From: a virus
Direction: 5' to 3' (one strand)
Length of the DNA: 64,000 nucleotides
Virus record (IMG/VR): IMGVR_UViG_3300025151_000024
Location: 17,435-81,434 of that record
Part shown: positions 13,901-63,932 of the stretch, piece by piece
Numbering within the stretch: the first letter of the stretch is position 1
Layout of the letters: every line of letters starts with the position of its first letter
Notes under the pieces: generated by a model
Seen by the model: the letters and a program-made list of their open reading frames with translations, nothing else
What the model was told of the DNA's origin: nothing
Databases searched by the model: none
Made by a program: the position numbers and the translations under genes

Positions 13901-16900
13901 AATTATCTAATTTAATTTGAGATAAATGTCTAAATCCATTTGCACTTGAATCATCAGGTGCTACTTTATGTAAAATACTCCACCAAGGTATATTCAAAGT
14001 AATACTTGGTGTGGCGTTTGAGAACATTTTACTATACGGGAATGCTCTTCTTGTAAACGAAGGGCTTTCACTCATTTCAACTCCGAATGGATTGAATAAA
14101 GACAATGGTGGTATTTTGTTAAATTGTGAACCAAAGTCAGGCTCTTGGTCAAGAATAATCTCATTGATGAATACTTCACAACCTCTAACATCTGCTTGTG
14201 TCGCTTCATCTAAGTATAGAACTAAAGCACCAACAGCGGCAACATACTCAGTTCCAATAACTGTGTGTACTTGTTGACTTGTTAATTTCTGTACACTATT
14301 GTAATAGTGATACCCTATGATTTGACTATCGAATAAATTCGGCTGTATTACAATTTGATAAGCCCCGACTTCACGAGGGTCAGGGAAATGATGTTGAAGT
14401 GAATACTTCTTAGCAGCCTCCAAAACAACGGTATGTCCACCTGCTTTGTTAATTACACCTGCATTTCCTCTAGAGCCTAAAACACCGTAACCATCCCATT
14501 TTACGCTAGTTTCAAACATTAAGGTGAAAGCACCGCCGTGTATATCGCTAGGTGTGCTAGGTGTAGCGGTCATTCCACTAAAGAAAATTTCAGGTTCTAA
14601 AGGATTCATTTTGTCCGTAACATTTGAAGAAATATCTGAAGAAACAGAAAGAGGAGTTTTTTCTTCGTTGAATAATTCTCTGTCTCTAAACCCTTTGACT
14701 GAAGAATTTTCAGCAAGATGCTTCCTATACACACTTTGGTAGGCAGGGTGAGCCCAATGCCCCGGTAACATTGGCATAGTGGCTGAAACAAAATGATGAC
14801 CCATTCTAGGATAAGGCATTGGTGTAAGAACTGGCTTTGTGTAAATTGTGTGGGCTTCTGTATCTGAATTCACACCTGTGAAATATTGAGTATGAGCCAT
14901 ATCAGGCGAAGCACCACTTACTTCTGCATGGTCTCTCATACGCTGTGCAGCATAGAATCTAGCACTTCCCGCTGGCATATAGTAAGATGGCACTATCTTC
15001 AAATCAGTAATAGTTTGAGCAGCAATAAAGTCTGTAAAGTCCACATCGCCAACAACACCCGTAAAGGTAGTTCCTGAAATTCCAGTATATGATGCAACCA
15101 CCGATTCTTCAGTTGTAGGATTGTAAATGCGAATGAATCTTCTATCGTCACTTACTTCTTTAGTACCAAAGTCAGCATCGTAAATTCTTGTATTTATTGT
15201 AGCATTCACCGTAAGTACTGAAGTTGAAGAATTCCAAGAAGAACCTGTAAGAACTTGATTTTCAACACCATTTGAATGGGTGTAAGTGGTTGGGTATCTG
15301 TGGGTATGGCTGTGACCCATTTTTGTTACATGGAAGAAAAGAGTTCTATCATGTAATTCGTATGTGGTTTTTAATGGTGCATTTTCTGTAGCATCCACCC
15401 AGCCAGTTTTGATACTATCATTTGAAACTGGGTCAATATGTTCCCAATTCAAATTTTCATAAGTTGGTCCTAGTCGTAATTCTCCACCATTATCATTTGA
15501 ATCGAAAAGATGCTTTAATTCGGTTTCATCGAGGTTTGCTTGTAATACCCCTCCACTACCGAAAGTTTCGTTTTGATGTGCCATAATAGGGTCAAACCCT
15601 GAACGAACTAGGATATTACCCGGAATAGTTTCAGGGTCAGGTAAAGAGACCATTAGTGCTGGCTTATTGCCGCTGTTTGCAAGAGAAGGAGAACTGCCTT
15701 TTACACCTCTATCGTCTAATACTCTAAAAGTTCTAATTACAGTTCCTAATGGGCTTCCACCTTCTACAATATGAGTTTCTCCTGAATCATCAACTACAGA
15801 AATTTCTTCAAATTGAATTTCTTCATTTGGTATCACCAAAACATTACCAGTAATTTCTCTATGCTTATCTGCAAGTTGTGGTTGCTGTAATTCTTGAGTT
15901 TGAATTAGAGGGAACATGGCGCTATTTGTAGTCTCAAAACTAAATCGTACATTGCCGTATATTTTCTCCCCATGTGTGTAGGCTGTATCAGATTCAACTC
16001 TTGTAGTCCAAGGTACAGCGCCTAAACCTCTAGCATTCAAAGCAGGAAGAGATAAATTACCACCATCCATTCTTTTCCAAACAATATGCTCAGTTGAAAA
16101 GTTTAGGGCAGAGGTACGTTTGTACAAATCAAAAGCGTGAACATCTCCTTTCCAAAAATCATCAGGATAATCTGAATCTGAAGTATATGCAGTACCAGTA
16201 TAAAATTCAGGAACTACATTTCTTTCAGTGGTGATACCTGATTCTAAATTTTTAGAGCCAAGAGAGAAGTCTAAATCTGTAATTAAATCACCAGTTTTCG
16301 CCCTATCAGGATTTGCATTTTCTAATCTTAAATCTGTAACACTTCCAGTGTGGAAGGTGTAAGCGCCCAAATCTGTGGCGTAACTAGGCAAAGCGGTGTT
16401 ATCCACAATTAACGCTTCAACATTAGGACCAGCATGGGCTGGTGCAATGAAACGGTCTTGAGAATGGAATCTTTCATCCCATTTTGTTGTCCCAGCATAT
16501 TGTAATTTATTATTTGCAACACCTTTAGAAATTAAGAAATCCCCAACAGCAATAGAACCATCTCTATCTTTTTTCGCTATCAAAGCAAATTCAGATTCAG
16601 ATGCTACTACTAAAAATGCGTGTCCAAATAACCCTTGTGGGTGTGCTAAGTCTGCCGGTAGTGTTGATGTGATATCATAATGTACAGGTTTAGAGTGAAG
16701 GGTATCCGGTGCATTATCATCTGTATCTTTTCTAGCGTATGTTAAATTATTAGTGGTATAAGTTACACCTGTGCTGCTATCGTAAGGGTCGTTAATGTAA
16801 GTCATCAAACTAGAACCAATACCGTCTACTGGTGGTAAACTTTCAGGAGACCTCGCTAATGGCGCTACAATAGGCATATGGCTCAGGGTTTCAAGCATAC

Positions 16901-19900
16901 CGGAACTTATACCATAGGGTGAAAATGCTAGTTCTGAATGCCAAGCACCTAAACCAGCAGAATACCCTTCTGTACCTATTTTTAGGCTGTTTAGATAGGA
17001 GTATCTCTCGCCATGCCAACCCACTGCACCAATTGGTCTAGTGCGGTCTATTGCGTCTACAAGACCCGAAAAGTGAGTTTGACACATATGGTCTCTAGAT
17101 GATGCATTTTCGTTATTGAATCTGTGAACACCCGCTTTAGACCACACATACAAATTGGTATCTGTACCTCCAATTGTAGGGTTAGCAGATGGATTTGCTA
17201 ATGTAACGTAACTTTCAAATTCAGCGTTATTTGAAACTCTATTAGGTGCAAGATAGAATCTAACTTTCCAAGTACCACTATCCTCAAACACTTCTCTAGA
17301 ATGATAAGAAGCCCAAGCAGGGACAGTTGTACTTGAACTTCTATCGGCTTTTAGCCACCCACAAGCGGGTATCTGTTCTAGTGCAGTTTTTGTTGTAATA
17401 GTTGAACTTGAGAAATCTAAATAATTAGGCGCAGAAGAATTATTGTATGACTCAAAAGTGTCTAACTCGACCCAACCATATCTATCTTGACGCATAGCGT
17501 TACCCATAGAAGGCATATGAGTGCCGCCAATGGCTTTCAAAGCACCAGCGCCGGGGAAAGAATTGATTGCTGCTCCTAAAACAGTGGCTAATTCATTACC
17601 ATTTTGACACCTAGTAGCATCCACAATAATATACTCCATATCAACATCTGAAGAAACTAAAGCACCTTCTGATGCTGCGTAATCTAGAACTTTAGTGGTA
17701 ATAGGTCCAGCCACTCTATACGCTGTTGGGTGTAATTGTGATGAAGCACCCCAAGTTGTTAGAATAGTATCAGATTTAGGATGTGGTGGGTTGAATGTAA
17801 TTTGGTTATCCATCCAATTACCGCCCGGATGATAACCACCATCCATATGGAAAACCATATCTGCGCCAGTAGCGATTCCAAATCCTAAAAGTGAATTATG
17901 TCGTAAAGGCATAGAACGTTTAGTATCATCATTGTTCGCAGTAGAACCGCCATCTACGAACATTTGACCATACATTCTGCCGCTTTCAGGTCTTTGATTT
18001 AAAACGCCAACTATTGTTTTTCCTGCTGCCGTTTCCCAGTTTAATTGAGTTCTCCAGTGGAAGCGATTCCTTGCAGTATGGTAAGTTGAAGATAGAGGCA
18101 TATAATCGCCTTCATCGTTTTCAATATGGTTAGGCAGGAAAGTACCTTCGGGAACAGAAGTCCAACCGTTTCCAGCAGTAACTACTCTACCCGGATGTGG
18201 TTGTGCTGTATTGTAATTGATAGAACTAGAGTCTGCTATTTCTTGTGTGAAAGGAAATGATTGCCCCGGTCCAAATATAATGTAAGTAGTTTTATTTTCA
18301 GTTCCATTAACATGGTCTTCGTATCTAGCAGTAGGGTGTGCAAATCTCAGAACTAGTGGGCTTGGTTTCTGCACAACAGTGTTATTTGTTGAATACGGAA
18401 CAGAATTAGGATGGTCGCTGTTAATAGTCCCTGCGCCTGAATCTAAATCAGGAGATAATATGTTATCTCTATTATGTGCTGGTGGAACTAAAGAACCTCT
18501 ATGTTGATTCAAAAGTGGAGTACCGGGGAAGAAAGCCATCATAGCGTTAGCATCTAAAATCGCGTGGCTTGTAACAATCTCATTTGCGTTTTGAATACCA
18601 GCAACCCCTGTAGGACCACTTGCGTATGGATGGGTATAGAAGTCTGAATAATCATTCATAGTGCCGTCATTTACATCTAAAACGACACCACTAAACCCAC
18701 CACCAAAGAAGACTGGTACACTATGGTCAGCACTACTTCTACCTCCTGAGAATTTTACAATAAGAGGTGAATCTACACTACCTATGGAGCGAATACCATC
18801 TATTTGTTGTGTAGTATCTAAATCACCCTTTACAGAAATAACACCTTCTGAAGAATTATCAATATCTCCTTCTCTAAATGCTTGTGTAAGTTCTATACTC
18901 TGTGTACCTGCAATCGGTATTAAAGTAGTTAAAACTGTTCGATATGAGTTAATATTAGCACCTTGATGACCTTCTACTGTAACTCTAGCGCCCGGCCAAA
19001 AAGATACTGTTTTAACTTCTGATACTGATTTTACAGTCCCTGTATCTTTACAGGCTGGTGCTAAGAATCCCCAAATAGAATTATTTAAACCTGAAGTTGC
19101 CATATAAATATGGGTTAAAGTGTTAGAAGAAGAATTTAACCCTTGATAGAATAATGAAGGGTTATCAATTGCGGGTAAGATGTGGTCTCCTGAAGTTTTC
19201 GTAAAATTATCTCCATTGAGATTTTTACGCCATGTATCAATAAAAGTATTATTTACTGGTTCATTTAATGAATCTATTAAGGTAGGAGAATTTGAATTTG
19301 AATTTGGCCCAAATGATTTACTCTTTATCTGTAACAAAGTCATAGGGATGTACCCACAATCAACCCTTCTTCCAGCATCTAAATTAGCATCAGTAACTGC
19401 TCTACTTGTACCAAAAGCCCATTCTGCGCTATTTTCTAAGGATTTTTCTATTTCTCCATATTCTAAATGTGCAGCCCTAATACCGTAATCTTGGTGTACT
19501 TCTGCTGTGAAATATTCACTGATTGGTATAATTTTTCTATTAGGATTAAACGCTCTTATCCTTATACTATCGGCCTTAACTCCCCATTCTCCAAAAGTAC
19601 GACCATCTGCTGCAAGCATTTCTCTACAATCAAAAGATACTCCGCTTTCTTCATTTACATCTACAGCGTTTATTGCAGCGGCGGTTACAGCACAAAGGAG
19701 TTCATCTGTAACTAGAGTAGTCCAATTTAATGATGGAGAAATTAGATAATTAGAAAATGAGGTATCTGATGATAATTCAGAAGTTATGCCGTAAAACTCA
19801 TGAGGGCCATTAAAGTCATTTTGTGTTCTATTTTCATAGTATAGAGTAAGACCAGTATTCCCACTACCTGAAGTATTTGTTAACTGTATTCTACCATTAG

Positions 19901-56780: not shown

Positions 56781-57734
56781 TCATTGTGGTTGTTGTGGAG
56801 GCACAGGGGGGGTCGCCTCATTAGCCTGTTGATTCAAGATTTCTTGGAAAGCAGGTGTAGGTTGATTCATTTGCATCAATTCTTTTTGGAATATTCTTAA
56901 GTCAAAATGGACCGATGTTAAATCATTCATACCAGTTTCAGGATTCTTGTAATGAATTATATTTATACCACTAGTTTTTCTTGAATCTTGTTCAAGCATT
57001 TCAAAAAATGGTTCGTATTTTTGTAGCATTTCAGGAACAGGCGCTTCGTCCTTTTTCACAATACTAACTGGGACGGTAACAATTGAGACCCCTTGTTTCA
57101 CTTTATCTCTAAATCTAGAAGGTTTCATTTCATTTTCTTTTTCTTCTTCGGCTTCCCACTTACAAAGAAGATGGAATAAATGGAGATGTTCAGGACAATA
57201 AGTACCCCTCATTTTTCTTCCACTAGTAACTTTGTCCATAGCCAAAAACGCTTCAGCCTCTCCAGTTACAGGATTTTGCCAGTACATATCCCAAAGACTT
57301 CGGCCAGTCTCATCATCACATATTTTTGCATAGAGATTATCATACTGGATTAATTCTTTACAGTCGCAACCATCAACCACACAAAGATGAGATTGCTTGT
57401 TGTAGAGATATTTTGAGCCAAAAATTCTCCTTGGAGAGAAAAGGAAGCGCTTTGTTGGTCTCAAAAGCCGATATGCTTGTCTAATATCTTGACTTCTAGC
57501 CTTTCTAGGATTGGCGTGAGTGCTTGGATAGAAGTTAACTTTTGGAACTTCAAGATTTCTTTGATTTGCGATTTGTTGCATTTCCCTTTGAGCAGCAGCC
57601 TGTTCCATCAACACTGCTCTAGTCAGTTGTGGGTTACCTTGTGCTGCTAAAGCCATAAGTGCAGCATCATTTGAAAATCCTAAGTTTGTGTATTGACTTT
57701 CACCCGAAAAAGGTATATTCATCGTCTCACACAT
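56781..57734 (-). CDS. Cys/His-containing protein of the membrane/GTPase module, unknown
   Basis: 317 residues from ATG 57734 (overlapping the AbrB-like stop); an ATG 12 nt downstream is an alternative. The first 65 residues are Gln/Ala-rich. CVVDGCDC near 118-125, a later C and CPEHLHLFHLLC near 180-191 could form a zinc site. The latter part is Pro/Gln rich. No domain is recognised. Conserved overlaps with its neighbours suggest it works with them. Confidence 0.45.
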   Translation of the reverse strand: MCETMNIPFSGESQYTNLGFSNDAALMALAAQGNPQLTRAVLMEQAAAQREMQQIANQRNLEVPKVNFYPSTHANPRKARSQDIRQAYRLLRPTKRFLFSPRRIFGSKYLYNKQSHLCVVDGCDCKELIQYDNLYAKICDDETGRSLWDMYWQNPVTGEAEAFLAMDKVTSGRKMRGTYCPEHLHLFHLLCKWEAEEEKENEMKPSRFRDKVKQGVSIVTVPVSIVKKDEAPVPEMLQKYEPFFEMLEQDSRKTSGINIIHYKNPETGMNDLTSVHFDLRIFQKELMQMNQPTPAFQEILNQQANEATPPVPPQQPQ

Positions 57735-57912
57735 CCTTTACTGGATTCACTTTGATACAAAAGTCCCCATTTTCTATATCCAACTTCCACGTTAATCGGT
57801 CGCCGGGTTTCAAGTCAAACTGCTCTATAATCCAAATTGGAACTGTAGAGCGTAGACTATTCGACCCACCACCTGTGGCTACGAGGGTGGTGTCGTTTTT
57901 TACTCTAGCCAT
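57727..57912 (-). CDS. AbrB/SpoVT-like swapped-hairpin DNA-binding protein
   Basis: 61 residues. SLRSTVPIWIIEQFDLKPGD followed by RLTWKLDIENGDFCIKVNP matches the AbrB/MazE swapped-hairpin pattern (S.R..IP..V...L..GD.l), a dimeric transcriptional regulator fold. GGTGATACT precedes ATG. No toxin-like gene accompanies it, so a regulator of this operon is likelier than an antitoxin. It overlaps the next gene by 8 nt. Confidence 0.7.
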   Translation of the reverse strand: MARVKNDTTLVATGGGSNSLRSTVPIWIIEQFDLKPGDRLTWKLDIENGDFCIKVNPVKDV

Positions 57913-57974: not shown

Positions 57975-58688
57975 TCAACTGGACAATAAATCAAGCATGG
58001 TTACTTCCACATTCCACCCAATTCTTGTAGCCATAAAGGAACGTTTTGTTCTAATACCTGCTTTTTGTAATCTAATTAAGTCATCACGAAATGGGTCGAA
58101 AATCTTGTGTTCCCCAATTCTTCCCTGTTGCCAAAGCATTGCAGCGTTCTCATCGAAAAATCGGTCTGCTTTATTCCCAACTAACATGATAACTTTAGGA
58201 GAATATCTTTTACCTCGCCATCTACTTTTTAGGGTTCGGTAGCGATAATTTCTTTTAATCAAAGTATCAACTAAGAATTTGAAGCCCGCAACTTGCTCAA
58301 CTCCTTCCATACCTCCTTTAAAAGCCCGGTCGTCAAACATATAGACAACAGCCTCAACTTGGCGAGATACCATATCTTCAACCCATAAATTCCAATATCT
58401 CTCTTGACCACCAATATCTGCTGAATTTACAACTCTTTTTTCACCCTTCCAATGAACTCGTTTTTTAGTAGCCCTCGGTAAAATGTATCTAGTTAGAATT
58501 TTGAAATGCTCTGTTCTTTCATCTTCTGAAATTTCCTCCATTTCACCCGGAGTAGTAAGATAACTGTCTAAAGTTGTTTTACCAACCATACTTGTCCCAT
58601 AAACAGCAACTGACCTCGGTTTCCAAGAATTATAGAGATTCTGACCCCAAAGGGCTGCACCAATGAGTACACTGCCCGTCATGGACAT
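57975..58688 (-). CDS. Arf-like small GTPase
   Basis: 237 residues. P-loop GTSMVGKT (31-38), switch II DIGGQERYWNLW (91-102, the DxGGQ form of Arf and SRbeta rather than DTAGQ of Ras), NKAD (172-175) for guanine specificity, and a late ATRIGWNVE like the G5 region. Residues 1-22 (MSMTGSVLIGAALWGQNLYN) are hydrophobic/amphipathic, like the membrane-binding N-terminal helix of Arf. A Lys/Arg-rich insert sits near 145-165. It lies between two membrane-protein genes and an AbrB-like gene. Substrate and effector are unknown. GTPase folding is likely; membrane switching is inferred. Confidence 0.8.
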   Translation of the reverse strand: MSMTGSVLIGAALWGQNLYNSWKPRSVAVYGTSMVGKTTLDSYLTTPGEMEEISEDERTEHFKILTRYILPRATKKRVHWKGEKRVVNSADIGGQERYWNLWVEDMVSRQVEAVVYMFDDRAFKGGMEGVEQVAGFKFLVDTLIKRNYRYRTLKSRWRGKRYSPKVIMLVGNKADRFFDENAAMLWQQGRIGEHKIFDPFRDDLIRLQKAGIRTKRSFMATRIGWNVEVTMLDLLSS

Positions 58689-58692
58689 AATA

Positions 58693-58950
58693 TCAACTCA
58701 CTAAGTCTACTAACCAATTACCAAAATCTGCTACTTGCTGGAAAAACCACTCAACTGTCATAGACCAAAGAGAAACATCGTAATATAATTCAGTAGCACT
58801 AACAGTAAGAACAGACGCTACACTGACAATTATTGTTCTAACCCAACCATAACCCCATTCGTAGACGTTATCTACAGTATTTGCTAAGTGCATAGCACGT
58901 AGCGTTTCTTCAACGGAGTCGTCTTTTGGTGTTTTGAAAATCTTCCCCAT
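58693..58950 (-). CDS. Small membrane protein next to GTPase
   Basis: 85 residues from ATG 58950; an in-frame TTG at 58956 overlaps the upstream stop. CGTGATTGAGC before the ATG supports the ATG. Residues about 33-53 (WVRTIIVSVASVLTVSATEL) form a membrane segment. A second, weaker segment near 60-84 has two Trp-rich stretches (WSMTVEWFFQQV, FGNWLVDLV). It is followed within 5 nt by the GTPase gene, so a shared membrane complex is plausible. Confidence 0.6.
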   Translation of the reverse strand: MGKIFKTPKDDSVEETLRAMHLANTVDNVYEWGYGWVRTIIVSVASVLTVSATELYYDVSLWSMTVEWFFQQVADFGNWLVDLVS

Positions 58951-58952
58951 GC

Positions 58953-59621
58953 TCAATCACGATTCTTGCTATATCTCAAGTCAGGTGTGCCATCTTTTTT
59001 CAATGGTATGTCTGAAAGTTCGTCAGCCATGTTGTTTAATTCGCTAACTCCAAGTGACTTCGACTCAGTAACTTTGGCTTTGTGAACAGGTGTATTGTTA
59101 GGTGTGCTAGAAACTGGATTTTGCAAAGCCCATTGGTATGCCTCTTCGTTAGTTGAAACCAAAGATGGGTTTAGAGTGGAATGGTAATCTAAACCTAGAT
59201 TTGATTGGTTATTGATATCCCTCATGCTCGGACTAAATGAACTAGGTACTTGGTCAGGATTCTGTTCCATCCATCTAAGTTCTTTTTCTAATTCTAATTC
59301 TTGCCTTCTCAATTCCATATCAGAACGGCGTTGGTCAAATGTAACCTGAATATTTTTGAACCGATTTTGCTGTTGCCTTTGGAATTCTGTTATTCTTGCC
59401 CTTTCTCTTAGATTTCTTTCAAAGAACATCTTAAACAAGTAATAAGCCAGTCCTTGAACAGCGAAAGCCCCCATAGCGTAATTCACTCCGTTCATCCACG
59501 TTTCATCGTTTACTAACCACAGTCTACTATCGAAAATAGCAACTGCTACACCTATCAATGCTGATTGGCTTATGATAAGCCCCATCAGCCTAATTTCTGA
59601 GTCGTTGTTATCGCCCTGCAT
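58953..59621 (-). CDS. Two-pass membrane protein with cytoplasmic coiled coil
   Basis: 222 residues. Membrane segments at about 11-30 (LMGLIISQSALIGVAVAIF) and 43-63 (MNGVNYAMGAFAVQGLAYYL) are followed by a long charged helix (RERARITEFQRQQQNRFKNI to KELRWMEQ), likely a coiled coil, and a polar tail. It overlaps the next small membrane gene. It is the first gene after the 81-nt palindrome. Such a layout fits a membrane anchor for the adjacent GTPase, but this is inference. Confidence 0.6.
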   Translation of the reverse strand: MQGDNNDSEIRLMGLIISQSALIGVAVAIFDSRLWLVNDETWMNGVNYAMGAFAVQGLAYYLFKMFFERNLRERARITEFQRQQQNRFKNIQVTFDQRRSDMELRRQELELEKELRWMEQNPDQVPSSFSPSMRDINNQSNLGLDYHSTLNPSLVSTNEEAYQWALQNPVSSTPNNTPVHKAKVTESKSLGVSELNNMADELSDIPLKKDGTPDLRYSKNRD

Positions 59622-59663
59622 ACTTTGACCTCGACTGAGGCCACCGAAGGGGTCATCATAAAG

Positions 59664-59677: not shown

Positions 59678-59687
59678 TCTAGCAAAG

Positions 59688-59768
59688 AATCCAATAATCC
59701 GATGTATAGTATATACATAAGATATAATATATATGTAAAGTCTATACTATACATTAGACAATTGGATT
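59688..59768. repeat. 81-nt near-perfect palindrome in intergenic region
   Basis: A symmetric structure centred on 59728: 32 of the 40 pairs match by my count. Outer arms AATCCAAT/ATTGGATT are perfect, and ATGTATAGTATA/TATACTATACAT is a perfect 12-bp block at 59702-59713 and 59743-59754. The AT-rich core could host TATA boxes on either strand. It ends 2 nt from the stop of the upstream gene and lies 67-147 nt before the ATG at 59621. Dimer operator, promoter, termination or packaging site are all possible. Confidence 0.7.
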
Positions 59769-59769
59769 A

Positions 59770-60447
59770 TTACCTTCTGAGAGTTCCACGGTCTTTGAAA
59801 TGCCTAGCCCGGTTTGCGTGTTCACTCTCAAGAGTTAATTTACCACCTTGGGTATGACTCACATCCATATGGTCACCTGACCCATAGATGCCCCTGCGTC
59901 GTCTCTCACGATTGAGTTCCTCTCGATATTTTACTCGTTCCGGGCTAGACTCGTATTTCTTGTCGTATTCCAATTTATGCCGCTTGGCTTCAGGGGATTT
60001 ACGTTCTTTAAGAAAATCAAATGCTTTCTGAAATTCTGTTAATGATGTTTGAGTTGTAGAAGTGTCAGCAGGTTTAGGTGTTGGTTGTGAAACCGGCTTC
60101 TTGAACCACTTATCGGCAGTAAGTGGGCTGATAGTAGCACCTTGAGTTAAAGATGAAGGTAGTTTTTGTTGTTGTTTCACAATAGTGGGTTTTCCACCGA
60201 CACCTTGCTTCTTTGCTCTCTTTCTTTTTGTGGCCGCTTGTTTTTGCCCAGCACTCATTGAACCTGAAGTTTTAGGAGTTTTACTACTGACTTTAACAGA
60301 AGGTCTACACTTTGGGTATCCTTTACTGGATGTTTTCGCTTCACTTCTCCCACAAGGTGGATGTTTTCCATCCTTATCTTTTCTAGATACATCTACCCAC
60401 TTTTCTTTGAACCAACGATTAAGATTCTTGACAAGTATTTCTGTCAC
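59770..60447 (-). CDS. Basic protein with HNH-like C-terminus
   Basis: 225 residues. The N-terminal half is a basic Cys-containing module (KWVDVSRKDKDGKHPPCGRS, then YPKCRPSVKVSSKTPKTSGS) common in marine phage ORFs. After a Pro/Gln linker, TEFQKAFDFLKERK resembles the tag motif. The C-terminus (SPERVKYREELNRERRRRGI, GSGDHMDVSHTQGGKLTLES, ANRARH) has the spacing of HNH-like nucleases (D-x-SH, then N). It starts in the ATG/TAA junction of the upstream gene. Nuclease function is inferred. Confidence 0.6.
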   Translation of the reverse strand: MTEILVKNLNRWFKEKWVDVSRKDKDGKHPPCGRSEAKTSSKGYPKCRPSVKVSSKTPKTSGSMSAGQKQAATKRKRAKKQGVGGKPTIVKQQQKLPSSLTQGATISPLTADKWFKKPVSQPTPKPADTSTTQTSLTEFQKAFDFLKERKSPEAKRHKLEYDKKYESSPERVKYREELNRERRRRGIYGSGDHMDVSHTQGGKLTLESEHANRARHFKDRGTLRR

Positions 60448-60659
60448 TACTCATCACCGACCCAAGCATCGCAAACATGGTCGGCTCTACAGTTAAAATC
60501 GTACATCTTACAATAACCAGTTTCAGGGTCTTTAGTAGCAGAAGCATCCCAAACTTTACAGTTTCCGCAATTTTTTGAGCCTGATGCTTTACGATAATTA
60601 GGTGCATCCTCTTTACCTTTGAGAAGATTCCACGCCTTTGTTATTGCTACGTGGGTCAT
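60447..60659 (-). CDS. Tag-bearing Cys-rich small protein
   Basis: 70 residues from ATG 60659 (ATGA overlap with the upstream stop). MTHVAITKAWNLLKGK carries the tag motif. It is followed by CGNCKVWD, GYCKMYDFNCRADHVCDAWV, a cysteine layout like small iron-sulfur (HiPIP-like) or zinc proteins of phages. Probably metal-binding; partner unknown. Confidence 0.6.
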   Translation of the reverse strand: MTHVAITKAWNLLKGKEDAPNYRKASGSKNCGNCKVWDASATKDPETGYCKMYDFNCRADHVCDAWVGDE

Positions 60660-60847
60660 TTCTTCTTTTTCCCCCTGAATTTCCCACGACAATACTGAAC
60701 CGCCCACCCATTTGCATAAGCAGATGGATAAACTTTGAATTTTCTTTTAGCAGCGGCTTTACCTTCAGGGCACAATTTTTTGTACAAACCATCCCATACG
60801 GTATCCATTGCGTGGCAATGGCCGCATTCACAAGTCATTTTCACCAC
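60656..60847 (-). CDS. Small Cys/Lys-rich protein, KRKFKVYPSAYANGWAV type
   Basis: 63 residues from GTG 60847; an ATG at 60838 is an alternative start. An N-terminal CECGHC cluster precedes KLCPEGKAAAKRKFKVYPSA and YANGWAVQYCRGK, a motif common in marine-phage small basic proteins. It is encoded beside the basic HNH-like protein. Probably nucleic-acid binding or a virion protein; no function assigned. Confidence 0.55.
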   Translation of the reverse strand: MVKMTCECGHCHAMDTVWDGLYKKLCPEGKAAAKRKFKVYPSAYANGWAVQYCRGKFRGKKKK

Positions 60848-60848
60848 A

Positions 60849-61292
60849 TCATTGTGTCTTCAAAATAGACCATGCAAAGTCAAAAGCCTCAGACCTTAGT
60901 ATAGTTGGGGCAGCAGAACCAGTTTCAAAGTCATCATCATCCGAAGAAGAGCCAAATGCCCGCAATTGACTCCTAACTGCAGGTCTTGGTGCAAAAATTC
61001 GCCTTCCTCTCTCCAAGGATGCAGCCTCTCGTGCCGCTCTTTGCCTTTCTAATTCTCTCTGTCTAGACAAAGCCCCACCCGGAGTCGGCATTCTACCGAC
61101 TCTTGCTCTTTCAGCAGCATAATCAGGAGAAAGTGTGGCAGTACCTTCAGGCATTTCACCTAAATGGGATAGAGTTTCCATTTTTTCCTTTTTATCTTTA
61201 TCAGGAGTAGCAGTTTCTGTAGGCTTTTTTGGGCTAGGTTTAGTTACTGAAATGACTAAGGCCATTCCGGGCTTTTTCTTATCTTCAGGCAT
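60849..61292 (-). CDS. Charged protein with tag motif at its C-terminus
   Basis: 147 residues from ATG 61292, overlapping the upstream stop. The body is Lys/Arg/Glu-rich with no fold recognised. It ends LRSEAFDFAWSILKTQ, the F-x-x-A-W-x-x-L-K motif, here placed at the very C-terminus instead of the N-terminus. This supports the motif being a portable linear element. Confidence 0.5.
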   Translation of the reverse strand: MPEDKKKPGMALVISVTKPSPKKPTETATPDKDKKEKMETLSHLGEMPEGTATLSPDYAAERARVGRMPTPGGALSRQRELERQRAAREAASLERGRRIFAPRPAVRSQLRAFGSSSDDDDFETGSAAPTILRSEAFDFAWSILKTQ

Positions 61293-61554
61293 TGCGGTCA
61301 CGCTCCATCATTAATCTTGCAAGTTGAGACATTTTATCTTTCTTTTTCTCTTCTTCATCTTTAATTTCAGGTTTTTCGGTTTGACCGGGGTCGGATTCTG
61401 ACCTTCTTCTAGCGACAGCCATCCTTTCAGCAGCAGAAGTGCCCGGTGGGAAATCGGATTCACGAAGTTCTTTAGGGTCACGATAAGGGTCATCAACTTC
61501 GTCATACCATGCTTTTTTCAAAGAATTCCATGCTAAATCGAATGCTGCTGTCAT
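61285..61554 (-). CDS. Tag-bearing small charged protein
   Basis: 89 residues. MTAAFDLAWNSLKKAWYDEV opens with the tag motif, followed by acidic and Arg/Lys-rich stretches with a possible helical C-terminus (KMSQLARLMMERDRNA). It overlaps upstream (ATGA) and downstream genes. No family was recognised. Confidence 0.5.
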   Translation of the reverse strand: MTAAFDLAWNSLKKAWYDEVDDPYRDPKELRESDFPPGTSAAERMAVARRRSESDPGQTEKPEIKDEEEKKKDKMSQLARLMMERDRNA

Positions 61555-61790
61555 CGTTGTCTTGCCACCCTTACTAATCCTGTTTGTCTCCTCATTTTTG
61601 GTCTAACTGCTCCTCTCGCCAAGTCCCGCTTGTACTTCGCTTTGGCTTTCTTGGTTTTAACCTTTCTCGCCATCCTTTGAACTTTGGCTCGTGCTACCTT
61701 TTTTGGTCGCTGAGAAACATAAGATTCTTTCTTGTATCCGAATTGACCTTTCAAAAGGTCATAACAAAGAGAGAACTCTTCTCCGCTCAT
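61551..61790 (-). CDS. Basic tag-bearing protein at the operon start
   Basis: 79 residues. MSGEEFSLCYDLLKGQFGYK is a degenerate form of the tag; the rest is about one-third Lys/Arg (KVARAKVQRMARKVKTKKAK). It is probably nucleic-acid binding or packaged. It is the first gene of the long minus block, divergent from the plus-strand gene at 61850 with a 59-bp gap. No strong ribosome binding site or TATA box was found in that gap. Confidence 0.5.
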   Translation of the reverse strand: MSGEEFSLCYDLLKGQFGYKKESYVSQRPKKVARAKVQRMARKVKTKKAKAKYKRDLARGAVRPKMRRQTGLVRVARQR

Positions 61791-61849
61791 ACAGAACGAG
61801 CCGAAGGAAAAACGGTAAGTTCTTAGATTTCTCCCTTCTTCGACAGGTC

Positions 61850-62209
61850 ATGAGCAAGGTGTTGGTGCTGAAAGCCGCCCCAGCACTAGCCCTTGCCGCC
61901 CCAGCAGCAACAGGTGGAGCGATGACTACTACTGGGGCAGCAACAGGCGCAGCGCGAATTGGTGTTGGAGCGGGTGCTGGTGCAACAGCAGGGTCGAAAG
62001 GCGCTGGCGGTTTAATTGGAATTTTGAATAAACCAAAAGAAGCGGCTTCATCTGCTCTTTCAAGGACAATGAAAGAAACTCCTTTTGGAAATGAGCAACA
62101 AATGGCTCAAAAAGAAGCAGAAAATAGGGCAGCGTACCAACGATTAGCCGGTGAATCCCGCCAATTAATGCGAGAAGGGGCTAATATTAACACCACGCAA
62201 TTTTCGTGA
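61850..62209 (+). CDS. Plus-strand Ala/Gly-rich protein with MSKVLVLK N-terminus
   Basis: 119 residues from ATG 61850, with AGGT just upstream. It begins MSKVLVLKAAPALALAAPAA, matching the opening of the 248-residue protein near TerL, followed by a Gly/Ala-rich hydrophobic region and a charged C-terminal helix. It runs opposite to its neighbours, and its last 45 nt overlap the HMG-CoA-lyase-like gene. Possibly a virion or membrane protein. Confidence 0.5.
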   Translation: MSKVLVLKAAPALALAAPAATGGAMTTTGAATGAARIGVGAGAGATAGSKGAGGLIGILNKPKEAASSALSRTMKETPFGNEQQMAQKEAENRAAYQRLAGESRQLMREGANINTTQFS

Positions 62210-63097
62210 GATGTATCTTCTTGCTCTTTCTGCAAGTGGAATTTTAATTACTGATTGCAAATAAACTTCAGCAGCCTCTAATTTTGCATTGTCTATCTTT
62301 TGCTCAAGTGGAATACCGTAGTCATTCGCCCAGTCTACTGCAAATTGAGTAGACAAGTTTCCAAAACTTCCCGGCACGAATGGGCAACCGCCCAGCCCGC
62401 CAACACTACAATCGAACTCTCTAACACCGGAAAGATAGGCGGCATTGAGTAAATCTTCAAATCCAACACGTTTTGCTGATGGTTTGTGAAAGTGAACAGC
62501 AACATTATCGAATACAGTTTTTGCTAACTTAATTTTTTCAACTGCAATTTTTGGAGTTGCGGAGCCATCGGTGTCTGCGAGCACGACTGTGCCTACTTTT
62601 CCACTGCACCAGTTTAAAATTTCAATAAATGAAGCATCATCATAGTCTTCAAACGGGCTAGAAAAGGCACAACTGATGTAAGCCCGAATGAAAGAAGGCG
62701 GCATTCCTAGAATTGTTTCTTCATATCTCTCAAAAATTCGGTCTAATGACGGTGTTCCTAGATTTCGGGCATTAAATTCACCGGAAGGAGAAAAATAGAT
62801 GTTGTAATATTCTATTTCGGTTTCTAAACCACGCTCTAATCCTTCTCGATTGGGTACTAAAGCCGCAATTTCGGGCACAATATCGAGATTTTCAACAAGT
62901 TTAGTAAAAACCACGTCTGTATCTCTCATTTGTGGTACGAGGGCTGGGTGAACGAAACTACCAATCTCAATTTTATCTAACCCAGCCTTGATTAGCATCT
63001 CCGCTAAGGCTACTTTTTGGTCCGTAGTGACCTCTTTTTCGATTGTTTGAAGGCCATCCCTCATTCCTACTTCGTAAAGTCGGATTGAGTCAGCCAT
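62165..63097 (-). CDS. HMG-CoA lyase-like (DRE-TIM) metalloenzyme
   Basis: 310 residues from ATG 63097. Signature elements align with human HMG-CoA lyase: GMRDGLQ (Arg13/Asp14), KIEIGSFV (Glu44), FSPSGEFNA, ISCAFSSPFE, LADTDG (Asp175), VHFH (His202/His204), GGLGGCPF (Cys238) and GN (Asn247). Spacings match (offset about 28-31). The HCHDTYG loop is instead HFHKPSAKR, so substrate specificity may differ. The family cleaves HMG-CoA to acetyl-CoA and acetoacetate. In a virus this would be an unusual metabolic gene; it sits downstream of the tag-bearing 63111-63290 gene. Confidence 0.85.
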   Translation of the reverse strand: MADSIRLYEVGMRDGLQTIEKEVTTDQKVALAEMLIKAGLDKIEIGSFVHPALVPQMRDTDVVFTKLVENLDIVPEIAALVPNREGLERGLETEIEYYNIYFSPSGEFNARNLGTPSLDRIFERYEETILGMPPSFIRAYISCAFSSPFEDYDDASFIEILNWCSGKVGTVVLADTDGSATPKIAVEKIKLAKTVFDNVAVHFHKPSAKRVGFEDLLNAAYLSGVREFDCSVGGLGGCPFVPGSFGNLSTQFAVDWANDYGIPLEQKIDNAKLEAAEVYLQSVIKIPLAERARRYISRKLRGVNISPFSH

Positions 63098-63110
63098 GTA
63101 ACCCCGGAAG

Positions 63111-63290
63111 TTACCTTTGCAAATCAACATATCGGGCGAAAAGCATCTCTGCTTCCTCTTGTAGAGCAACGTCTCCGCTGTTCATCATTTTCACTAGGGT
63201 AGTGAAGATAGTATTCTTCTCTTCCAAAGAAAACGTTAGACCCGATGGCTGTGTTTTAAGCAAAAGCCATGCCTCATTAAAAGCGGTCAT
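63111..63290 (-). CDS. Tag-bearing small protein upstream of HMGL-like gene
   Basis: 59 residues from ATG 63290. MTAFNEAWLLLKTQPSGLTF is the clearest copy of the tag; the rest is helical (LVKMMNSGDVALQEEAEMLF). A TATA box 25 nt upstream indicates a leaderless start. It heads a two-gene unit with the HMG-CoA-lyase-like gene, 13 nt apart. Confidence 0.6.
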   Translation of the reverse strand: MTAFNEAWLLLKTQPSGLTFSLEEKNTIFTTLVKMMNSGDVALQEEAEMLFARYVDLQR

Positions 63291-63310
63291 CAGTAAAAAC
63301 CCCACACATG

Positions 63311-63319
63311 ATATATAAA
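63311..63319 (-). promoter_or_regulatory. Archaeal TATA box
   Basis: Minus-strand TTTATATAT is centred 25 nt before the ATG at 63290, the usual TATA to start distance. The transcript should begin at or near the ATG (leaderless). The same AT-rich stretch read on the plus strand (TATATAAAT) could also serve the plus-strand ORF at 63362. Confidence 0.6.
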
Positions 63320-63331
63320 TAAACCCTTCTT

Positions 63332-63358
63332 AGCCTCGACATTATGATATCCGAGGCT
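63332..63358 (+). promoter_or_regulatory. AGCCTCG / CGAGGCT inverted repeat
   Basis: A perfect 7-bp inverted repeat with a 13-nt spacer between the TATA region and the small plus-strand ORF. It could be an operator or an mRNA hairpin in the leader. Confidence 0.45.
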
Positions 63359-63361
63359 TTC

Positions 63362-63484
63362 ATGGGGTTAATTATGGGGTCAATCAAAAAACAACTGTGG
63401 GATTTATCACAGTGGATTTTAGTGATTGGAGTTTCGATTTCACTGTACTTTATCGAAGATTCTATCTTCGTATTTTTATCTTAG
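63362..63484 (+). CDS. 40-residue membrane protein
   Basis: ATG 63362 (or ATG 63374) to TAG 63484. Residues about 15-32 (LSQWILVIGVSISLYFIE) form one membrane helix, followed by a second hydrophobic stretch. A weak GAGG sits before the first ATG and GGGG before the second. It converges on the GNAT-like gene, overlapping its last 23 nt. Small but coherent; not certain. Confidence 0.45.
   Translation: MGLIMGSIKKQLWDLSQWILVIGVSISLYFIEDSIFVFLS
63454..63480 (+). terminator. Hairpin followed by T-rich tract
   Basis: CGAAGAT-TCT-ATCTTCG is a perfect 7-bp stem with a 3-nt loop, followed by TATTTTTATC on the plus strand. It lies at the 3' end of the small plus-strand ORF and near the end of the convergent GNAT-like gene. 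It looks like an intrinsic-type terminator. Confidence 0.4.
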
Positions 63485-63932
63485 GTGGCTTGTACAAACC
63501 CCTTCTCCAGTTCGGGTCTTGTTTCCAGTCCGGTTTTTCTGCACCAGTCTTTTCTCTACGAGCATCCCAAAATTTTTCGGCGGCTTCAGATTGAGCGACC
63601 GCCTCATCTGCAACTGGTAAACCTGTGACTTTTTCGGCATGGTCGTACATATCGGTTGCAATACCTCCTCTCCTGAAAGCAGGTTTCACTTGGGCAGTAC
63701 GTGGAACTAATTTATCTTCATGAACGTAAAAACTGGCAGTTCCATAGTTCATTGGTTTTTGGTCATAAGCCTCTAACCCTTGAGTTGCCGATATGTTTAA
63801 CACAGCAGGACCATGCTCATTTCTTGGAATAATGGAATGCTGCATATAGAATTCTTCAGGGTCGCCATAGTATGGGAAATCAGGCTTTGGCGGCATCTTG
63901 AGCAAGGCCCACGCTTGGTTGAAGGGGGTCAC
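63462..63932 (-). CDS. GNAT-like acetyltransferase with N-terminal tag
   Basis: 156 residues from GTG 63932, chosen because GAGGTGA lies 6 nt upstream. MTPFNQAWALLKMPPKPDFP opens with the tag motif. The core has VKPAFRRGGIATDMYDHAEK, a GNAT motif A (R-x-G-[GA]), followed by a KFWDARR stretch as in GNAT enzymes found in phage genomes. It probably acetylates a protein or small molecule. The C-terminus is basic (LYKPPKIKIRR). Confidence 0.65.
   Translation of the reverse strand: MTPFNQAWALLKMPPKPDFPYYGDPEEFYMQHSIIPRNEHGPAVLNISATQGLEAYDQKPMNYGTASFYVHEDKLVPRTAQVKPAFRRGGIATDMYDHAEKVTGLPVADEAVAQSEAAEKFWDARREKTGAEKPDWKQDPNWRRGLYKPPKIKIRR

What the first reader, a model, noticed from the sequence alone, without database searches (positions are those of the whole stretch)
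59688..59768. An 81-nt, highly symmetric palindrome at the head of the membrane/GTPase module
Centred on 59728, 32 of the 40 pairs match by my count, with perfect AATCCAAT/ATTGGATT ends and a perfect 12-bp ATGTATAGTATA block. It is far larger than a simple operator, and splits a tightly packed gene block. It may bind a dimeric regulator (the nearby AbrB-like protein is a candidate), act as a promoter/terminator switch, or be a packaging or replication site.
Basis: seen in the sequence. Interest (0 to 1): 0.75.

Follow-up and report, generated by a model that had tools for sequence, protein, structure and literature searches.

The report
Virus-specific repeat array before late genes
The palindrome is real and belongs to a family of DNA landing pads, built from 9-base repeats facing each other, that related viruses of marine archaea mostly keep in the same place but spell differently in each virus, so it probably acts as a control switch for virion genes (and perhaps replication), read by a fast-evolving viral protein that is not yet identified.

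Summary
The palindrome is real: 31 of 40 pairs match around 59728, against 23 for the next best place in the 81-kb virus record. The record is a magrovirus-like archaeal tailed virus. The element fills the gap directly upstream of the promoter of MP222, first gene of the block leading into the virion genes. Of 82 related loci, 72 carry a self-complementary element in the same slot (z>2), centred about 107 nt before the start codon, although its sequence differs widely between viruses. Its arms are tandem repeats phased at 9 bp (28 of 31 non-redundant elements; shuffles 4.5 on average), inverted about an AT-rich core. Within one virus the same "spelling" recurs elsewhere: before an MCM-like helicase gene (the window's own virus has a half-copy there), and in non-coding DNA near the GC-skew minimum where the two gene arms diverge. 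This fits an array read by a virus-specific DNA-binding protein, most likely a late-operon switch shared with replication control. The AbrB-like protein is a poor candidate reader: its binding motif is conserved while the sites change. An RNA hairpin or terminator is unlikely.

The parts
59688..59768 (.). Imperfect 81-bp palindrome (site A), centre 59728: inverted array of short repeats around an AT-rich core
   Evidence: 31/40 pairs; best in the genome; element conserved in position in 72/82 relatives
59688..59712 (+). Arm 1: AATCCAAT-AATCCGAT-GTATAGTAT, two AATCC units 8 bp apart, then GTATAG; same motif as the half-copy at G000:14283
59744..59768 (-). Arm 2, read on the minus strand: AATCCAATTGTCTAATGTATAGTAT
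59713..59743 (.). AT-rich core between the two repeat arms
   Evidence: sequence
59657..59663 (-). TATA-like box CTTTATG of the MP222 promoter, 42 nt before the start codon; equivalent box at -37 to -43 in almost all relatives with a palindrome
   Evidence: not experimentally tested
59626..59632 (-). Shine-Dalgarno-like GAGGTCA before the MP222 ATG
   Evidence: sequence
58953..59621 (-). MP222: 222-aa predicted membrane protein, first gene after the palindrome, found in 82 of the 85 loci examined (the other three are cut by contig ends or lack a start)
59770..60447 (-). Gene upstream of the palindrome (DUF5872-type protein)
   Evidence: PF19197 E 1e-10
58693..58956 (-). MP87, small membrane protein, same operon
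57975..58688 (-). Ras/Roc-like GTPase of the operon, used to collect relatives
   Evidence: (weak PF08477)
57727..57912 (-).

Best explanation
The palindrome is a double-stranded DNA recognition array. Each arm is a short row of units phased mainly at 9 bp (8 or 9 bp in the window's own arms), the two rows point at each other across an AT-rich core, and the array sits just upstream of the BRE/TATA of the promoter that opens the MP222-GTPase-virion gene block. A sequence-specific protein, most likely encoded by the virus, binds the array cooperatively and sets when this operon is transcribed. The same protein would bind the related sites at the MCM-like helicase promoter and in the non-coding region where the two gene arms diverge, so tying late transcription to replication. 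SHOWN: symmetry, fixed position, 9-bp grammar, fixed spacing to the TATA-like box within clades, and the virus-specific spelling shared between distant sites of one genome. INFERRED: that a protein reads it, that the protein is viral, that it acts on transcription, and the link to replication.
For: Position: 72 of 82 MP222 upstream regions are self-complementary with z>2, about 55 with z>=4; in the scored set the centre lies at a median of -106.5 from the ATG and the TATA-like box at -40. In a scan of all gaps in 19 genomes this gap is the top or near-top one in most. Grammar: exact 5-mers repeat at lag 9 within an arm in 28/31 non-redundant elements (shuffle mean 4.5, max 11; z 45), with further peaks at 7, 12, 16, 18, 21; the helicase and divergence sites also repeat at 9, and the divergence site at 16 and 21. 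Promoter coupling: in one clade, several viruses keep TGA-starting units about 20 and 29 nt before TTATA although the following bases differ (TGACT, TGATA, TGACA, TGAGA). Trans-acting reader: with each genome's own site A excluded, the own palindrome was the best of 16 palindromes at finding another match in 10 of 16 genomes, where about 1 is expected; the site-B matrix has own column rank 1 in 9/9 (selection-biased). The window's own virus carries a half-array in the MCM-like helicase promoter, 31 nt at 84% identity.
Against: No binding, transcript or infection data exist. About 10 of 82 relatives lack a clear palindrome at this place (e.g. L018, L103, L112, L153) yet keep the promoter, so it is not indispensable there. 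The TGTCAT clade lacks the motif in the helicase promoter. A-versus-helicase-site similarity is own-best in only part of the genomes. Self-consistency of the two arms alone could also come from hairpin-mediated template switching. The window's own units are spaced 8 bp in both arms; 9 bp is seen in one arm of its closest relative L010. Other gaps show a weaker lag-9/12 signal, probably residual coding.
Confidence: 0.6

Rival explanations
1. The array is an iteron-type replication origin (or secondary origin): an initiator protein binds the repeats, the AT-rich core melts, and the MCM-like helicase is loaded.
For: Inverted iterons around an AT-rich core; same spelling at site B, which lies near the divergence of the gene arms and within about 0.1-4.5 kb of the cumulative GC-skew minimum in 9 of 10 genomes (G016, a partial contig, is the exception), and at the MCM-like helicase promoter.
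Against: Site A itself is about 6-12 kb from site B in the genomes with both sites, inside a co-directional gene block and locked to a TATA box. Several relatives lack A but have B or the helicase-promoter motif. GC skew is confounded with gene direction.
Confidence: 0.22
2. Packaging (pac/cos) site recognised by the small terminase subunit.
For: Lies in the same operon direction, about 4 kb upstream of the HTH-containing TerS-like gene and about 9 kb upstream of the large terminase.
Against: Extra copies at the helicase promoter and at site B; coupling to a TATA box. TerS-like protein is well conserved (about 65% identity between viruses with unrelated site spelling).
Confidence: 0.06
3. RNA hairpin: terminator, attenuator or processing site between the DUF5872 and MP222 genes.
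For: Strong hairpin, -26.7 kcal/mol, z -5.8; arms co-change in relatives.
Against: Direct 9-bp repeats inside arms have no reason in a hairpin; arms are offset by indels in many relatives; a half-array stands alone at the helicase promoter; B and helicase sites are upstream of promoters or in non-coding DNA.
Confidence: 0.05
4. No specific reader: the symmetry is made and homogenised by palindrome-driven template switching and slippage, or by a miniature mobile palindrome.
For: Explains arm-to-arm identity and tandem repeats without a protein (general knowledge).
Against: Fixed place and fixed spacing to the TATA box in dozens of diverged viruses; same spelling at sites tens of kb apart; no scattered copies in the genome.
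Confidence: 0.05

Closest known systems
SvtR of SIRV1 and AvtR of AFV6 (ribbon-helix-helix regulators of archaeal viruses; review PMC5569661)
   Same: Virus-encoded protein binds imperfect inverted repeats upstream of viral promoters; SvtR's strongest site lies about 80 nt upstream of the TATA/BRE of a structural gene and it is proposed to polymerise along DNA.
   Different: Those sites are short (16-22 bp consensus), studied in single viruses of hyperthermophiles; here 80-200-bp inverted arrays of 9-bp units, virus-specific spelling, in euryarchaeal tailed viruses; reader unknown.
F55 operator arrays of SSV1 (PMC5569661)
   Same: Tandem repeats at several promoters of one archaeal virus, sites differing in number of units.
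   Different: F55 sites are 2-unit direct repeats overlapping BRE/TSS in a temperate virus; here inverted arrays upstream of TATA in viruses whose described relatives are predicted to be lytic (PMC12999244).
Iteron origins of plasmids and phages, archaeal ORB origins, SV40 pentanucleotide palindrome (own knowledge)
   Same: Short repeats, often inverted, flanking an AT-rich core, near replication genes.
   Different: Site A abuts a late-type promoter away from the skew minimum; initiation not shown.
Stoperators/heteroimmune operators of temperate phages such as L5 (own knowledge)
   Same: Phage-specific recognition sequences repeated in one genome and differing between relatives.
   Different: No repressor is known in magroviruses and the described family lacks an integrase (PMC12999244); sites few and palindromic.

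Membership tests
Regulatory operator/UAS array of an archaeal virus | Repeats adjacent to a BRE/TATA promoter at fixed distance | tested here: met
   TATA-like box at -37 to -43 before the ATG in almost all; units at constant offset within clades
Regulatory operator/UAS array of an archaeal virus | Shared sites at more than one promoter of the same genome | tested here: met
   (helicase promoter; not in the TGTCAT clade)
Regulatory operator/UAS array of an archaeal virus | Bound by a regulator and changing transcription | not testable with these tools
   no binding or expression data
Iteron-type replication origin | Phased iterons plus AT-rich core | tested here: met
Iteron-type replication origin | Located at the GC-skew minimum / replication start | tested here: not met
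   site A lies about 6-12 kb from site B in the genomes with both; site B is near the minimum in most; the window's own contig ends before B
RNA hairpin/terminator | Function carried by a stem with compensating changes, no internal repeat need | tested here: not met
   arms made of direct 9-bp repeats, offset by indels; single half-copy elsewhere
AbrB-type operator (AbrB-like protein at 57727-57912) | Binding residues change along with the sites | tested here: not met
   TGGGSNSLRTTVP motif conserved over unrelated sites; VNKKSKCVRTVIP identical in L013, L014 and L025 with different repeats
pac/cos site | Genome ends or packaging starts here | not testable with these tools
   no reads available

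The most novel reading that the evidence does not exclude
Magroviruses carry a private, quickly re-spelled address code: one fast-evolving viral protein reads a virus-specific 9-bp-phased array at the replication origin, the helicase promoter and the virion-operon promoter, so that each virus runs only its own replication-to-late-gene switch even in co-infected cells. A fast-evolving protein of unknown fold encoded beside site B (about 250-315 aa) is one possible reader.
Probability: 0.3. Interest if true: 0.8.

Novelty: new variant of a known kind. Interest (0 to 1): 0.62.

Why it matters
Late-gene control and replication starts of the abundant uncultured viruses of marine Poseidoniales are, as far as the papers searched here show, undescribed. 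This gives a concrete, sequence-testable cis-element in dozens of genomes, a way to place candidate origins (site B), and a clear case of coordinated change of a recognition code across distant sites of one virus.

Tried and rejected
Scattered repeat or MITE: no further copies in the window or genome beyond one half-copy. tRNA/attachment site: no tRNA in the window. AbrB-like reader: motif conserved while sites change. GC skew of the window alone: follows gene strand, no sign change at the palindrome. Family searches of the helicase-like and B-adjacent proteins gave no useful Pfam hit, and no PHROG hit was found for the helicase-like protein. The B-adjacent protein's AlphaFold model (pLDDT 80) has no convincing PDB match, so it stays a guess. 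Literature on magrovirus promoters or origins: none found in the held library; two key papers are not held. The site B of the window's own virus could not be read: the contig ends before it, and two near-identical contigs that appear to extend it show no clear further copy beyond the known A and helicase-promoter sites. A 780-aa protein scan to collect more B sites found only itself.

Full report
OBSERVATION. The window is bases 17435-81434 of an 81,434-bp virus record. Its genes (family B DNA polymerase, RFC-like AAA protein, ERCC4 nuclease, SU10-type capsid protein, large terminase) and their two-directional layout match the published description of magroviruses, tailed viruses of marine Poseidoniales (PMC12999244). 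The palindrome is real: arms 59685-59726 and 59730-59771, 31 of 40 pairs around 59728. The second-best symmetry in the whole record is 23, and simulations of the element's own composition reached 27 at most in 2000.

A SECOND, SINGLE-ARM COPY. One more place in the record carries the arm motif: bases 14282-14312, between the ERCC4 nuclease gene and a 464-aa gene, directly before that gene's TATA-like box. An AlphaFold model of the 464-aa protein (19 orthologues, pLDDT 69) finds almost only MCM helicases in the PDB among its best 50 matches (best E 0.015), so it is an MCM-like helicase with moderate confidence. A lone half-palindrome argues that each arm works as a double-stranded site and not as half of a hairpin.

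RELATIVES: PLACE KEPT, SPELLING CHANGED. The GTPase gene of the same operon brought in 21 and then 80 loci. In 82 loci I took the 260 nt before MP222 and aligned each with its own reverse complement against dinucleotide shuffles. 72 had z>2 and about 55 had z>=4. The loci are not all independent, but those scored reduce to 31 clearly different elements. The centre lies at a median of -106.5 from the start codon, the TATA-like box at -40. The letters differ widely: AATCCAAT..., TTGTCCGAC, TAGTCAT, TTATCAT, TTGTCAT, TTCACTTTA, GTTCACTAT, ATTATTC and others. When all gaps of 19 genomes were scanned blindly, this gap was the most self-complementary one in most genomes. About ten relatives lack it, so it is common but not universal.

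GRAMMAR. In the arms of the 31 elements an exact 5-mer recurs 9 bp away in 28 (shuffles: mean 4.5, maximum 11), with secondary peaks at 7, 12, 16, 18 and 21, i.e. combinations of 9, 7 and 12. Lags 7 and 16 are not multiples of three, so this is not codon structure. The window's own arms have units 8 bp apart; one arm of its closest relative (L010) has 9. The AT-rich centre and the inverted orientation of the two rows are general.

COUPLING TO THE PROMOTER. In the TGA clade several viruses keep TGA units about 20 and 29 nt before TTATA, while the bases after TGA differ between viruses. In the window's clade the last GGACA unit is about 19-20 nt from CTTTATG in many relatives and about 29 nt, one helical turn more, in the window itself (reading). 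This is what a factor touching TFB/TBP or blocking them would need, and is hard to explain for an origin or packaging site.

SAME SPELLING ELSEWHERE IN THE SAME GENOME. In records that include the region where the two gene arms diverge, a third site (B) with the virus's own units lies there. Because B was picked by its match, I repeated the test without that bias: for each of 16 genomes, with its own site A excluded, all 16 palindromes were scored against all other gaps. The genome's own palindrome ranked first in 10 of 16, where one is expected; most of the failures are records where no B site was found, or a B site excluded by my filter (G031). B lies within about 0.1-4.5 kb of the cumulative GC-skew minimum in 9 of 10 genomes; the exception, G016, is a partial contig. 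B is therefore a fair candidate for the replication origin, with the caveat that skew follows gene direction. The window's own record ends before B.

WHO READS IT. It may bind elsewhere, but it cannot easily explain the changing code. A 250-315-aa protein encoded next to B is among the least conserved shared proteins, which is what one would expect of a co-evolving reader, but its model (pLDDT 80) resembles nothing in the PDB convincingly. I regard it as a lead only.

HOW IT LIKELY WORKS. Best reading: a cooperative binding array for a virus-encoded regulator that opens or holds back the operon leading into the virion genes and that also touches the helicase promoter and the putative origin. 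Precedents for viral proteins binding inverted or tandem repeats upstream of viral promoters in archaea are SvtR, AvtR and F55 (PMC5569661); SvtR's main site sits about 80 nt upstream of the TATA of a structural gene. Shown here: anatomy, position, grammar, shared spelling. Inferred: the protein and the direction of control. Rivals: origin or secondary origin (0.22), packaging (0.06), RNA hairpin (0.05), no reader (0.05).

NOVELTY. The kind of element (operator/iteron array) is known; this layout, its re-spelling in each virus and its sharing between three places are, as far as the searched library shows, undescribed.

Noticed in passing
L004:14349-15743 (record bases 14349-15743): 464-aa protein without Pfam or PHROG match whose model resembles MCM helicases; invariant Walker-type motifs (PSRxGKS, NFDEGS). 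Probably the viral replicative helicase.
   Followed up: partly
L042:14890-15798, L198:13220-14062, L194:12326-13264, L182:3714-4523, L240:28-771, L245:3965-4912: Fast-evolving 250-315-aa protein family encoded beside site B in several magroviruses, no known domain; conserved core KKARKAWARxxxGxDWW.
   Followed up: partly
window 62165-63169: HMG-CoA-lyase-like protein (PF00682, E 1e-17) encoded by the virus; G010, G017 and G005 have a relative of it.
   Followed up: no
window 60447-63932 and relatives: Many short genes whose products start with an 'AFD/FNxAWxLLK' signature, a family of small proteins around the accessory region.
   Followed up: no
record bases 16507-18057 (L004 and window start): 516-aa protein that reads like a group II chaperonin (thermosome); identified by eye only.
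   Followed up: no
records G009, G015, G021 (e.g. L050-L052, L061-L063, L084-L086): 10-23% apparently non-coding at the ORF settings used, much more than the 2-5% of most relatives; possibly frameshift-rich assemblies.
   Followed up: no
L013, L014, L025 versus window (AbrB-like protein): The AbrB-like protein falls into two classes (STGGGSNSLRTTVP versus VNKKSKCVRTVIP) that appear to follow the two repeat grammars (9-7 and 9-9-12).
   Followed up: partly
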